A stretch of DNA of 64,000 nt from Burkholderia metallica (GTDB taxonomy: Bacteria; Pseudomonadota; Gammaproteobacteria; Burkholderiales; Burkholderiaceae), in NCBI RefSeq assembly GCF_902832845.1, contig NZ_CADFDB010000009.1:248001-312000 (forward strand), written 5' to 3'. The notes under the pieces were generated by a model, which saw only the letters and a program-made list of their open reading frames with translations, was not told the DNA's origin and searched no databases. The position numbers were made by a program, and so were the translations under genes. The first letter of the stretch is position 1. Each line of letters starts with the position of its first letter. Positions 55,412-57,949 of the stretch are shown in pieces.

Positions 55412-56038
55412 TCACGCGCCGGGACGAAAGAGGTCGAAGCGGCTGTCGGGCTTCACGTGCGCGTAGGCCGACGGGCCGCCCGCACGCAGAATGATGCCCG
55501 CGCCGAACGTGTCGAAGATGCCGTCCTTCAGCAAGTCGTGGCGGATATGGACCGCGATGACCTCCCCCAGCACCAGCGTGGCCGGCGTGTCGACGCCGCG
55601 ATGATCGCGCAGCCGGATCACGTCGGTCACCTTGCATTCGAAGTTCACGCCGCTTTCCGCCACGCGCGGCACGTTGACCAGGCGCGACGAAAGCGCGGTC
55701 AGGCCGCCGAGGTCGAACTCGTTCACGTCGTACGGAACCGCTGCGCAGGTCTGGTTCATCTTTTCGGCAAGGTCGCGCGTCGCGAGGTTCCACACGAACT
55801 CGCCCGTTTCCTGCACGTTGCGCAGGCTGTCCTTCGCGGTGGTGCTCGAAAAGCCGATGATCGGCGGATGATAGTTGAACGCGTTGAAGAAGCTGTACGG
55901 CGCGAGGTTCAGCGTGCCGTCGCTGCCGCGGGAGGAAATCCAGCCGATCGGGCGCGGGCCGATGATCGCGTTCAACGGATCGTGCGGCAGGCCGTGGCCT
56001 TGCGACGGTTCGTAATAGTGATGGGTCGAGTCGGTCAT
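55412..56038 (-). CDS. Flavin reductase-like FMN-binding protein
   Basis: A 208-aa protein of the flavin reductase-like family. It has DPLNAIIGPRPIGWISSRGSDGTLNLAPYSFFNAFNYHPPIIGFSS, the FMN-binding core (RPIGWISS..G..NLAP.S.F), and TGEFVWNLATRDL. Such proteins reduce flavin for partner monooxygenases or act as reductases themselves; no monooxygenase is nearby. Its transcript is ended by the terminator at 55320..55359. It starts at MTDSTHHYYEPSQGH. Confidence 0.87.
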   Translation of the reverse strand: MTDSTHHYYEPSQGHGLPHDPLNAIIGPRPIGWISSRGSDGTLNLAPYSFFNAFNYHPPIIGFSSTTAKDSLRNVQETGEFVWNLATRDLAEKMNQTCAAVPYDVNEFDLGGLTALSSRLVNVPRVAESGVNFECKVTDVIRLRDHRGVDTPATLVLGEVIAVHIRHDLLKDGIFDTFGAGIILRAGGPSAYAHVKPDSRFDLFRPGA

Positions 56039-56214: not shown

Positions 56215-56254
56215 TAAAAAACCCGCGAGCGCTGCATTTCTCGCGGGTTTTTTT
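56215..56254 (-). terminator. Terminator of the intron-containing tRNA
   Basis: A perfect stem of AAAAAACCCGCGAG (56215..56228) and CTCGCGGGTTTTTT (56240..56253), with an 11-nt loop and T-runs on both strands. On the minus strand it lies 31 bp after the CCA end of the tRNA-Leu gene and is its natural terminator. Confidence 0.88.
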
Positions 56255-56285
56255 CGCCTTCATCGAATCGCATCGACGCAATCGA

Positions 56286-56620
56286 TGGTGCCGGGGACCG
56301 GACTCGAACCGGCAAGCCAGTTAAGGCGGCGGATTTTCGTCACACTGCTTCTTTCGAAGCCGGCGTCGTTCGAGCGATGCCGTTCGTGCGCTGGACTATG
56401 CCTTCACCGTCGCGCGCGGGCGTGAGCTCTGCCCGTGCGCCTTAGGCGCCCCCCGTCTAGTCTCTACACCTTCCTCGCGGATGCCGCGAGGCTTGGCTCG
56501 GCGTTGCCTCGATGCGTGCATCAGGGGTTTCGCCGAATTTGAAGGGTTCTGCACCGACCGTTTCCGGCCGGGCACTCAAACTTTTAAGTCCGCTATGTTT
56601 ACCAATTTCATCACCCCGGC
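56286..56620 (-). tRNA. tRNA-Leu(UAA), interrupted by a group I intron
   Basis: The 5' exon (56620..56586, 35 nt) and the 3' exon (56337..56286, 52 nt) join to an 87-nt tRNA. The acceptor GCCGGGG pairs with CCCCGGC, followed by A73 and encoded CCA. The D arm has the ATG/CAT stem with the GG pair. The anticodon arm is GCGGA-CTTAAAA-TCCGC with anticodon UAA. A long variable arm (GCC/GGC) is typical of leucine. The T arm is GCCGG-TTCGAGT-CCGGT. A TAGAAT (56641..56636) is a possible -10 element just upstream. Without splicing the anticodon loop would be broken, so the gene is functional only if the 248-nt insert is removed from the RNA. Confidence 0.93.
56338..56585 (-). ncRNA. Self-splicing group I intron (IC3-like) in tRNA-Leu(UAA)
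   Basis: A 248-nt insert in the anticodon loop, right after U34. The 5' exon ends in U, the intron ends in G (omega-G at 56338), and the exons join as CTT|AAAA. The internal guide GAGTG pairs with GACTT across the splice site with a G-U wobble. Core elements: P2 with GAAA loop (CCGGCCG/CGGTCGG), P4 TTCGGCG (56537..56531) with CGCCGAG (56503..56497), a CCTCGCGG/CCGCGAGG hairpin, P7 GACTA (56462..56458) with TAGTC (56398..56394), and a GAAA-capped hairpin (56360..56347). P, Q, R and S elements match the Azoarcus tRNA-Ile intron type. It encodes no protein. Confidence 0.9.
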
Positions 56621-56873
56621 AACAGGGCGGACGCGATTCTACCATTGCTTGCGCATGCGCTCCCTTATTCCGCGGCGCCGCATCGCGATACCGCGCCCCA
56701 TCACACCGATTCATCTGCGGTAATCGACGCCGGCACCCCGCCGACGACGATTTCGTCCCGCGTCGCACCATCCCCGATACAATCGGGTTCGCGTCGTCCG
56801 ACGGCCCGATCCGTCAGACGTTTGTGTCGTACTTCCTGCGAAACAAGCGTCGCCTGCGTCATCGCGAGGTCAC

Positions 56874-56908
56874 AAACGTTTTCGATAATTTTCCTGCCGA
56901 AAACGTTT
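56874..56908. promoter_or_regulatory. Two identical 8-bp palindromes before the LacI-type gene
   Basis: AAACGTTT occurs at 56874..56881 and 56901..56908, 27 bp apart, and the flanks extend the pair to an inverted repeat AAACGTTTTCG/CGAAAACGTTT (56874..56884 with 56898..56908). LacI-family operators are palindromes with a central CG, so both look like binding sites of the regulator that starts 15 bp further on. This implies self-regulation. Confidence 0.6.
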
Positions 56909-56923
56909 ACATCGCATGAGTTC

Positions 56924-57949
56924 ATGACCTCGACCATCAAGGACGTCGCTGCCCTCGCGGGCTTCTCGATCGCCACCGTCTCGCGCGCGATCAACGCCCC
57001 GCATACCGTCAGCCCCGCCACGCTGCAAACGATCCGCACCGCGATCGACACGCTGCAATTCCGCCCGAGCCCGCTCGGCCGGCAATTGCGCGGCGAGCGC
57101 ACGCGGCTCGTCGGCGTCGTCGTGCCGACGCTGTCGAACCCCGTGTTCGCGGACTGCCTGCAAGGCATCGACGAGCTGGCGACCGCGGCCGGCTTCAAGC
57201 TGATCCTGATGACGACCGAATACGACGCGGCGCGCGAGCGTCATGCGATCGAGACACTGCGCGAGCAGCGCGTCGAAGGGCTGATCCTCACCGTCGCCGA
57301 CGCGGATACGCACCCGCTGCTCGACATGCTCGACCACGACGGCCCGCACTACGTGCTGATGCACAACGACACGCAGCGCCGACCGTCGGTGTCGGTCGAC
57401 AACCGCAGCGCCGCGTATGACGGCGTGCGGCTGCTGACCGCGCGCGGTCACCGCCGCGTGCTGATGCTGGCGGGTTCCCTCGCCGCGTCGGATCGGGCGC
57501 GCCAGCGCCATCTCGGCTATGCACAAGCGCTCGAGGAAAGCGGCGTGGCCACGCTGCCGCCGGTCGAAGTCGACTTCAACGCGCCCGAGTTGCCCGATGC
57601 GGTGCTCGCGCATCTCACCGCGCACGCGACGCGCCCGACCGCCCTCTTCTGCAGCAACGACCTGCTCGCGATGGTCGTGATGCGCGGCCTGCGCCGCGCG
57701 GGCTTCTCGATTCCCGACGACCTGTCGGTGCTCGGCTTCGACGGTATCGCCATCGGCGAACTGCTCGCGCCGCCGCTCGCGAGCGTCGCGACGCCGAACC
57801 GCGACATCGGCCGCCACGCATGGCGGCGTCTCGTCGAATGCATCGGCGGCGCGGCGATCGAACGCACGTCGCTGATCCTGCCGCACGCGGTGCGCGACGG
57901 CGCGACCGTCGCACTGCCCGCCGCCGACCTGCAATTGCGCAAGGCCTGA
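56924..57949 (+). CDS. LacI-family transcriptional regulator
   Basis: A 341-aa regulator with the LacI-type HTH at residues 1-55 (TIKDVAALAGFSIATVSRAINAPHTVSPATLQTIRTAI), including the hinge region, and a periplasmic-binding-protein-like ligand domain (LVGVVVPTLSNPVFADCLQGIDELATAAGF). The closest style is of regulators that sit in front of ABC importers for sugars or phospho-compounds. It is followed 67 bp downstream by an ABC importer operon that it probably controls. The start ATG is preceded by the paired AAACGTTT palindromes. Confidence 0.9.
   Translation: MTSTIKDVAALAGFSIATVSRAINAPHTVSPATLQTIRTAIDTLQFRPSPLGRQLRGERTRLVGVVVPTLSNPVFADCLQGIDELATAAGFKLILMTTEYDAARERHAIETLREQRVEGLILTVADADTHPLLDMLDHDGPHYVLMHNDTQRRPSVSVDNRSAAYDGVRLLTARGHRRVLMLAGSLAASDRARQRHLGYAQALEESGVATLPPVEVDFNAPELPDAVLAHLTAHATRPTALFCSNDLLAMVVMRGLRRAGFSIPDDLSVLGFDGIAIGELLAPPLASVATPNRDIGRHAWRRLVECIGGAAIERTSLILPHAVRDGATVALPAADLQLRKA

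What the first reader, a model, noticed from the sequence alone, without database searches (positions are those of the whole stretch)
56286..56620. Group I intron inside a tRNA-Leu(UAA) gene of a Burkholderia-like genome
The gene reads as a perfect leucine tRNA only after a 248-nt insert is removed from its anticodon loop after U34. The insert ends in G, guides the 5' exon by a short pairing with a G-U at the splice site, and has P4, P7, the S/R core elements and two GAAA tetraloops. Group I introns at this site are known from cyanobacteria and plastids. In proteobacteria a related intron is known in Azoarcus tRNA-Ile(CAU), whose P, Q, R and S elements resemble these. If this is the only tRNA-Leu(UAA) copy in the genome, the cell depends on a ribozyme to read UUA codons.
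Basis: partly seen in the sequence, partly recalled or inferred. Interest (0 to 1): 0.92.

Follow-up and report, generated by a model that had tools for sequence, protein, structure and literature searches.

The report
Ribozyme intron in Burkholderia leucine tRNA
The only gene found for the transfer RNA that reads the codon UUA in this Burkholderia-like bacterium is interrupted by a group I (ribozyme-type) intron, a known kind of element that sits at the same spot in every sampled genome of the genus and also in many other bacteria, some plasmids and some phages.

Summary
Confirmed. Window 56286-56620 (minus strand) is a tRNA-Leu(UAA) gene split between U34 and A35 by a 248-nt group I intron (Rfam RF00028 E 3.1e-9, 41.4 bits, below its cut-off of 50). 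P1-P9, a possible P10, two GAAA loops and the terminal G are present; helices covary. No other tRNA-Leu(UAA) was found in the assembly, and UUA is the rarest codon in a 464-kb sample (24 of 108,855). All 65 genus genomes examined carry it at this site, none above Rfam's cut-off. The site is also occupied in many Proteobacteria and some Bacteroidota, in a jumbo phage isolate and two huge phages (Rfam itself did not match these), and on plasmids. Some gammaproteobacterial relatives encode an HNH-like protein; this copy has no room for one. Precedent for this site in Beggiatoa/Thiomargarita is in print (PMC4853749, passages). New member of a known kind; splicing is inferred, not shown.

The parts
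56286..56620 (-). tRNA-Leu(UAA) gene, 335 nt with intron, 87 nt mature, CCA encoded
   Evidence: ARAGORN with introns
56586..56620 (-). 5' exon, 35 nt, ends ...GGACUU (C32 U33 U34)
   Evidence: sequence
56338..56585 (-). group I intron, 248 nt, ends in G (56338)
   Evidence: R1 149 bits over 56391-56553 (R1 was built partly from this sequence)
56286..56337 (-). 3' exon, 52 nt, begins AAAAUCC (A35 A36 A37)
56574..56577 (-). internal guide GAGU; pairs with exon ACUU (56586-56589) as P1, U34.G at the splice site
   Evidence: sequence; P1 98.6% of cells paired in A4; guide matching the exon in 162 of 165 Leu(UAA) introns, a set with some repeats
56578..56580 (-). UUU before the guide; can pair with the first AAA of the 3' exon (56335-56337) as P10
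   Evidence: sequence; TTGAG in 147 of 154 distinct Leu(UAA) introns, 2.4% of shuffles
56554..56571 (-). P2 with GAAA loop L2 (56561-56564)
   Evidence: 6 of 7 pairs change on both sides
56541..56546 (-). P3 5' strand (3' strand 56449-56454)
   Evidence: 100% paired, 4 of 6 pairs change on both sides
56531..56536 (-). P4 5' strand (3' strand 56498-56503)
   Evidence: 97.1% paired, 1 of 6 pairs changes on both sides
56507..56527 (-). P5 and P5 extension
56469..56496 (-). P6 and P6a
   Evidence: one P6 pair C-G to G-C in 2 of 23 rows
56458..56462 (-). P7 5' strand, guanosine-binding helix (3' strand 56394-56398)
   Evidence: 100% paired, GACUA/UAGUC to GAGCA/UGCUC in 3 of 23 rows
56405..56448 (-). 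P8 (56445-56448 with 56405-56408) and its loop region
   Evidence: 100% paired, 3 of 4 pairs change on both sides
56341..56390 (-). P9 domain: 56386-56390 with 56341-56345, and 56356-56360 with 56347-56351 closed by GAAA loop L9 (56352-56355)
56222..56255 (.). hairpin with U runs for both strands downstream of the tRNA, likely terminator
   Evidence: seen directly; not called by the scan, whose loop limit is 8 (loop here 10)
56645..57949 (+). divergent LacI-family regulator ORF (flank; HTH domain from about 56933)
   Evidence: Pfam LacI and Peripla_BP
55412..56038 (-). flavin reductase-like gene (flank)
   Evidence: Pfam Flavin_Reduct

Best explanation
A compact group I intron (IC3-like by its resemblance to bacterial tRNA introns; subgroup recalled) sits between U34 and A35 of the only tRNA-Leu(UAA) gene found. 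Most likely the pre-tRNA folds, the guide GAGU and the preceding UUU hold the anticodon-loop sequence CUU|AAA (P1 and P10), a free guanosine bound in P7 cuts after U34, and the freed U34 attacks after the terminal G to join the exons, giving a normal leucine tRNA that alone reads UUA. The intron has no endonuclease gene and is inherited with the chromosome within the genus. Shown: gene, site, structure, covariation, single copy in the assembly, presence in all 65 genus genomes examined. Inferred: splicing in the cell, its chemistry, vertical inheritance.
For: The exons give one well-formed tRNA-Leu(UAA). Rfam group I match E 3.1e-9. Helices P3-P8 and P1, P2, P9 hold, and most covary. Guides at some other tRNA sites fit their own exon: Ile2 GUG in 26 of 28, Arg(CCU) GGG in 4 of 4. 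No intronless UAA-Leu among the 55 tRNA places; 0 of 49 same-genus genomes show the intronless loop pattern and 49 of 49 the intron-bearing one. Site verified in 65 of 65 genus genomes: ARAGORN in 30 and 9 more, exact pattern in the remaining 26. Exons nearly invariant in 28 aligned genus genes. 27 of 30 genus loci share at least one flanking gene.
Against: No splicing data. The Rfam score is below the curated cut-off here and in all 65 genus genomes. In the tree the six genus rows form two groups (88/94 and 89/86, neither starred) that are not joined to each other with support, so strict vertical descent is not proven. The guide test fails for several ARAGORN classes (Tyr-ata 0 of 12, Phe-aaa 0 of 3, Gln 0 of 2, Phe-gaa 0 of 2 and some single cases), partly through misplaced boundaries. 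The assembly is in 37 contigs, so a missed second tRNA is possible, though completeness is given as 100.
Confidence: 0.94

Rival explanations
1. It is a group I intron, but it needs a host protein (a tRNA synthetase or RNA chaperone, say) to splice and does not self-splice efficiently.
For: Nothing tested here speaks against it; some group I introns depend on proteins (PMC3984707, passages on Cyt-18 and Cyt-19). P1 is only four pairs.
Against: It has a full P1-P9 set with GAAA loops L2 and L9. That the Azoarcus tRNA-Ile intron splices alone is recalled (Tanner and Cech 1996, seen only as a reference).
Confidence: 0.2
2. The gene is a dead copy: the insert is a decayed element and UUA is read by another, unassembled tRNA.
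For: The assembly is in 37 contigs; UUA is very rare, 24 of 108,855 codons.
Against: 65 of 65 genus genomes keep it, many of them in 2-4 contigs; exons and catalytic core nearly invariant while loops vary; intronless pattern in 0 of 49 same-genus genomes.
Confidence: 0.02
3. The intron came recently by horizontal transfer, through a phage or plasmid that carries an intron-bearing tRNA-Leu(UAA), rather than by descent in the genus.
For: Phage and plasmid copies exist; a related branch mixes family members with Pseudomonas, Achromobacter and Lysobacter (100/98); HNH-like ORFs in relatives.
Against: Present in all 65 genus genomes at one tRNA; flanking genes shared in 27 of 30 genus loci, 2 of 22 family loci, 0 of 17 farther loci; no phage record matched the window's own intron by blastn.
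Confidence: 0.08

Closest known systems
Group I introns in tRNA-Leu(UAA) of cyanobacteria and plastids
   Same: Same gene (PMC4476775, start of abstract in the listing); similar length (Anabaena 250 nt, PMC2729099 passage); same site by recall
   Different: Different phylum; no cyanobacterial intron was obtained here, so common descent was not tested
Putative group I introns in tRNA-Leu(UAA) of Beggiatoa (BOGUAY) and Candidatus Thiomargarita nelsonii
   Same: Same gene, gammaproteobacteria (PMC4853749 passages, citing MacGregor 2013)
   Different: Sequences not examined here; that paper did not determine the secondary structure
Group I introns in tRNA-Ile(CAU), Azoarcus and others
   Same: Same compact tRNA intron kind; seven Ile2 introns of unnamed relatives match model R1 at 121-136 bits, three of them used to build it
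   Different: Other tRNA and site; Ile2 introns with one Pro form their own branch (99/92). Ile2 introns in Acidovorax and Burkholderia are named in PMC8450103 (passage)
bldA tRNA-Leu(UAA) of Streptomyces (recalled)
   Same: Sole reader of the rarest codon in a GC-rich genome
   Different: No intron in bldA (recalled), and no regulatory role shown here

Membership tests
Group I intron (Rfam RF00028) | Conserved core P3-P8 with P7 | tested here: met
Group I intron (Rfam RF00028) | Score above Rfam's gathering cut-off (a curation threshold, not a biological feature) | tested here: not met
   41.4 against 50 bits; 0 of 65 genus genomes above it. E-value and covariation nevertheless support membership
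[quoted passage not shown]
   sequence
Group I intron (Rfam RF00028) | Guanosine-initiated self-splicing | not testable with these tools
   needs in vitro splicing
Bacterial IC3 tRNA introns | Subgroup-specific peripheral contacts (L2-P8, L9-P5; recalled) | tested here: inconclusive
   GAAA loops L2 and L9 present; contacts not modelled
Cyanobacterial/plastid tRNA-Leu(UAA) intron lineage | Common descent with cyanobacterial copies | not tested
   No cyanobacterial intron obtained: one search rejected the input; the one cyanobacterial locus (L220, Hyella) reads as intronless
Homing (mobile) group I intron | Endonuclease gene in the intron | tested here: not met
   Longest stop-free stretch in the intron 82 aa, against 134-158 aa for HNH-like ORFs in six ~690-nt relatives
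bldA-like regulatory tRNA | Rarest codon read by one tRNA whose supply is regulated | tested here: inconclusive
   TTA rarest, 24 of 108,855, one gene found; regulation not tested

The most novel reading that the evidence does not exclude
Reading of the rarest codon, TTA, in Burkholderia is gated by a ribozyme: because the only tRNA-Leu(UAA) must splice with a guanosine cofactor, genes with TTA codons (21 of 289 ORFs in the sample) would respond to splicing rate, temperature or guanosine nucleotide state, a ribozyme version of Streptomyces bldA control. Alongside it, intron-bearing tRNA-Leu(UAA) genes would form a mobile pool carried by phages and plasmids.
Probability: 0.08. Interest if true: 0.85.

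Novelty: new member of a known kind. Interest (0 to 1): 0.55.

Why it matters
A decoding step that a whole genus appears to need rests on a catalytic RNA that routine searches miss: default tRNA finding and the Rfam cut-off both fail on it. The spread of the same site through Proteobacteria, Bacteroidota, phages and plasmids makes the old question of whether tRNA-Leu(UAA) introns are ancient or mobile directly testable. A 2014 review states that phage introns known then were all in protein genes despite many phage tRNAs (PMC3984707, passage); the phage copies found here would be exceptions.

Tried and rejected
Cyanobacterial comparison: one search was rejected because the centre must be a G handle; not pursued, so shared ancestry with the cyanobacterial intron stays untested. 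Absence counts were not used as evidence of loss, because over about 40 genomes only 4-7 candidates per genome were scored. In the exact-pattern survey 221 of 339 family genomes matched neither pattern; that is not absence, since the patterns exclude other guide and loop sequences (for example TTGAGCCC). The first synteny script used the LacI-type gene in the wrong frame; repeated in the right frame, with the same genus counts (25 and 9 of 30). ARAGORN's three default tRNA calls in the window were set aside: none of the three places is among the 55 of Rfam's tRNA model. The codon counts used long ORFs without a coding filter and were replaced by the GC-frame-filtered set; several TTA codons there lie within 25 codons of the most upstream start and may precede the true start, so 24 is an upper guide. 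Rfam at E 0.001 matched 3 (L114, L126, L115) of 8 loci given and none of L431-L434 and L161, so the phage introns and L161 rest on ARAGORN and on model R1 alone. Papers sought and not held: Vepritskiy 2002, Paquin 1997 and one further id tried from memory; that a tRNA-Leu(UAA) intron was reported from a deep-subsurface gammaproteobacterium in 2002 is recalled.

Full report
WHAT IS THERE. The minus strand of window 56286-56620 reads as tRNA-Leu(UAA) once 248 nt are taken out between U34 and A35; ARAGORN with introns allowed gives exactly this. The mature tRNA has 87 nt with CCA encoded. Default ARAGORN and Rfam at curated cut-offs do not show it. Searched alone, the stretch matches Rfam Intron_gpI over the whole model with 41.4 bits, E 3.1e-9, below the cut-off of 50.

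STRUCTURE. In intron numbering: guide GAGU 9-12 pairs with exon ACUU, with U34.G at the cut; UUU 6-8 can pair with the first AAA of the 3' exon (P10); P2 15-21/26-32 with GAAA; P3 40-45/132-137; P4 50-55/83-88; P5 59-60/78-79; P6 90-91/116-117; P7 124-128/188-192; P8 138-141/178-181; P9 196-200/241-245 and 226-230/235-239 with GAAA; last base G. On 23 tRNA introns (18 Leu, one of them Leu(CAA); 3 Ile2; 1 Thr; 1 Arg), 94.8% of 840 cells pair, 25 of 37 pairs change on both sides (shuffles 14.9, sd 1.6; 0 of 500 as high), and sliding partners by 1-3 columns drops pairing to 32-46%. The alignment was made by MAFFT without structure, but the structure was drawn from the window's sequence, which favours it on cells paired. 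P1, P2 and P9 on 20 Leu introns: 95.4% paired, 9 of 21 pairs change on both sides (shuffles 4.8, sd 1.4; 1 of 500 as high); P1 and the outer P9 helix show no change on both sides, so their support is conservation. P7 itself changes as a pair (GACUA/UAGUC to GAGCA/UGCUC, 3 of 23 rows).

THE GUIDE FOLLOWS THE EXON. Among the intron-bearing genes collected here, a guide that fits the exon is found in 162 of 165 Leu(UAA) cases, 26 of 28 Ile2 (called Met by ARAGORN) and 4 of 4 Arg(CCU). TTGAG lies within intron bases 4-32 in 158 of 165 Leu(UAA) introns against 2.4% of shuffles, or 147 of 154 distinct sequences. The set was partly chosen with a TTGAG pattern, so this count is not independent for the 50 named loci. 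The test fails in Tyr-ata (0 of 12) and Phe-aaa (0 of 3), where ARAGORN's boundary looks shifted, and also in Gln (0 of 2), Phe-gaa (0 of 2) and several single cases.

SOLE READER OF A RARE CODON. Rfam's tRNA model finds 55 places in the genome, 54 above cut-off, and not the intron-bearing gene. ARAGORN on all 55 gives leucine anticodons CAG, CAA, UAG and GAG (two) and no intronless UAA; the one weak place gives no tRNA. In 464 kb sampled (window plus 20 stretches; about 6% of the genome), 289 GC-frame-filtered ORFs hold 108,855 codons, of which TTA is the rarest, 24 (0.022%), in 21 ORFs.

DISTRIBUTION. Genus: 65 of 65 genomes match RF00028, none above cut-off. The tRNA-Leu(UAA) site was verified in all 65: by ARAGORN in 30 and 9 more, by exact pattern in the remaining 26. 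Exact patterns in 339 family genomes: intron-bearing 112 (49 of 49 same-genus including the window's own; 13 of 25 genera), intronless 6 (2 genera), neither 221. A model built from the core (R1) matches 64 of 399 genomes of the order and 73 of 369 of the class, the window's own genome included in each; these are lower bounds. Of the 58 loci L132-L189 from these two searches, ARAGORN reads 32 as Leu(UAA) with intron, 21 as other tRNAs (some probably misread) and 5 as none under the position filter. In the named collection the pattern scan stopped at its limit (119 stretches); of the 80 listed loci 50 are Leu(UAA) with intron, 3 more are so by my reading but called Phe, 16 are intronless Leu(UAA), 1 is Leu(UAG), 10 unclassified. 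Named carriers include Burkholderia guangdongensis, Paraburkholderia, Achromobacter, Variovorax, Pseudomonas jinjuensis, Lysobacter defluvii, Sphingobium cupriresistens, Bradyrhizobium tropiciagri, Stappia and Phaeodactylibacter (Bacteroidota).

MOBILE RELATIVES. Contigs could be misclassified, so isolates matter: in Agrobacterium phage Atu_ph07 (490 kb, complete record) ARAGORN finds tRNA-Leu(UAA) with a 278-nt intron where no tRNA is annotated (R1 102.4 bits), and two uncultured huge phages have 205- and 700-nt introns there (R1 114.2 and 51.0 bits). Rfam at E 0.001 matched none of these three. The window's own intron has no match in phage records by blastn. In plasmids 1,259 records match, 1,257 of them at 60-80% identity and 9 over at least 80% of the query; I examined two: the Mycetohabitans megaplasmid pBRH01 (tRNA-Leu(UAA), 263-nt intron) and pCTX-M3, where ARAGORN calls a tRNA with a 221-nt intron and a stop-reading anticodon; I read it as tRNA-Leu(UAA) with a shifted boundary (Rfam 36.8 bits, below cut-off; R1 115.6 bits). 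It lies beside a resistance gene. Six of the named Leu(UAA) introns of about 690 nt (one of them called Phe) encode a 134-158-aa protein; the one tested matches Pfam HNH_3 weakly (E 0.00048, 20.2 bits against a cut-off of 24.8). The window's intron has no stop-free stretch over 82 aa.

DESCENT. A tree of 100 cores rests on 141 columns and is poorly resolved: 21 of 97 inner branches are starred, and the bootstrap had not settled. Firm points: seven Ile2 introns with one Pro form a branch (99/92) next to and within Leu introns, and a branch (100/98) joins family members with Achromobacter, Variovorax, Pseudomonas and Lysobacter, which suggests transfer. The six genus rows fall in two unstarred groups not joined with support. 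Flanks: the LacI-type gene is found in 25 and the flavin reductase gene in 9 of 30 genus loci, either in 27; in 2 of 22 family loci and 0 of 17 farther ones (loci reach about 1.4 kb to each side). I infer vertical descent within the genus.

LITERATURE. [quoted passage not shown] Passages of PMC8450103 report Ile2 introns in Acidovorax and Burkholderia. [quoted passage not shown] PMC3984707 (passages) reviews bacterial group I introns. In the listings of ten searches and the passages opened I saw nothing on tRNA-Leu(UAA) introns in Burkholderia or on group I introns in phage tRNAs; most subscription papers are not held, so this is weak evidence of novelty.

VERDICT. A group I intron in the sole UUA-reading tRNA gene found; a new member of a known kind, ordinary in inferred mechanism, notable for its presence in every genus genome examined and for being missed by routine searches.

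Noticed in passing
L126 592-926 (G157) and L161 550-868 (G794): tRNA-Leu(CAA) genes with a group I-like intron after C34 whose guide is still GAG, so the splice-site pair would be C-G instead of the usual U.G (R1 130 and 128 bits; L126 was used to build R1).
   Followed up: partly
L114 200-484 (G032) and L361 (viral contig): An intron that fits the same position (after U34) in tRNA-Thr(UGU), in a same-genus genome that also has the Leu intron, and in a viral contig; ARAGORN puts the boundary one base later.
   Followed up: partly
L431 1233-1594; L432 1203-1493; L433 568-1354: Intron-bearing tRNA-Leu(UAA) genes in Agrobacterium phage Atu_ph07 (no tRNA annotated there) and in two uncultured huge phages whose records have no annotation.
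   Followed up: partly
L429 1465-1763 (pCTX-M3): tRNA-like gene with group I intron, not in the PLSDB gene table, on an IncL/M plasmid beside aac(3)-IId; the search matched over a thousand plasmid records, of which only two were examined.
   Followed up: partly
L434 1190-1311: Pelagibacter phage HTVC120P: R1 match of 100 bits between two CDS both called capsid protein, so an unannotated intron may split that gene (no Rfam match at E 0.001).
   Followed up: no
L061, L062: tRNA-Gln(CUG) with a group I intron in about 0.5 Mb genomes of the same family, the best Rfam scores of the family search, 82 and 76 bits.
   Followed up: no
L206, L212, L218, L243, L260, L263, L265: Pelagibacteraceae loci match the exon-plus-guide pattern but ARAGORN finds no tRNA; R1 gives no hit in the two tested, L206 and L212.
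   Followed up: no
window 56222-56255: Hairpin with U runs on both strands just downstream of the tRNA, likely a two-way terminator; it probably accounts for the weak amino-acid leader matches.
   Followed up: partly
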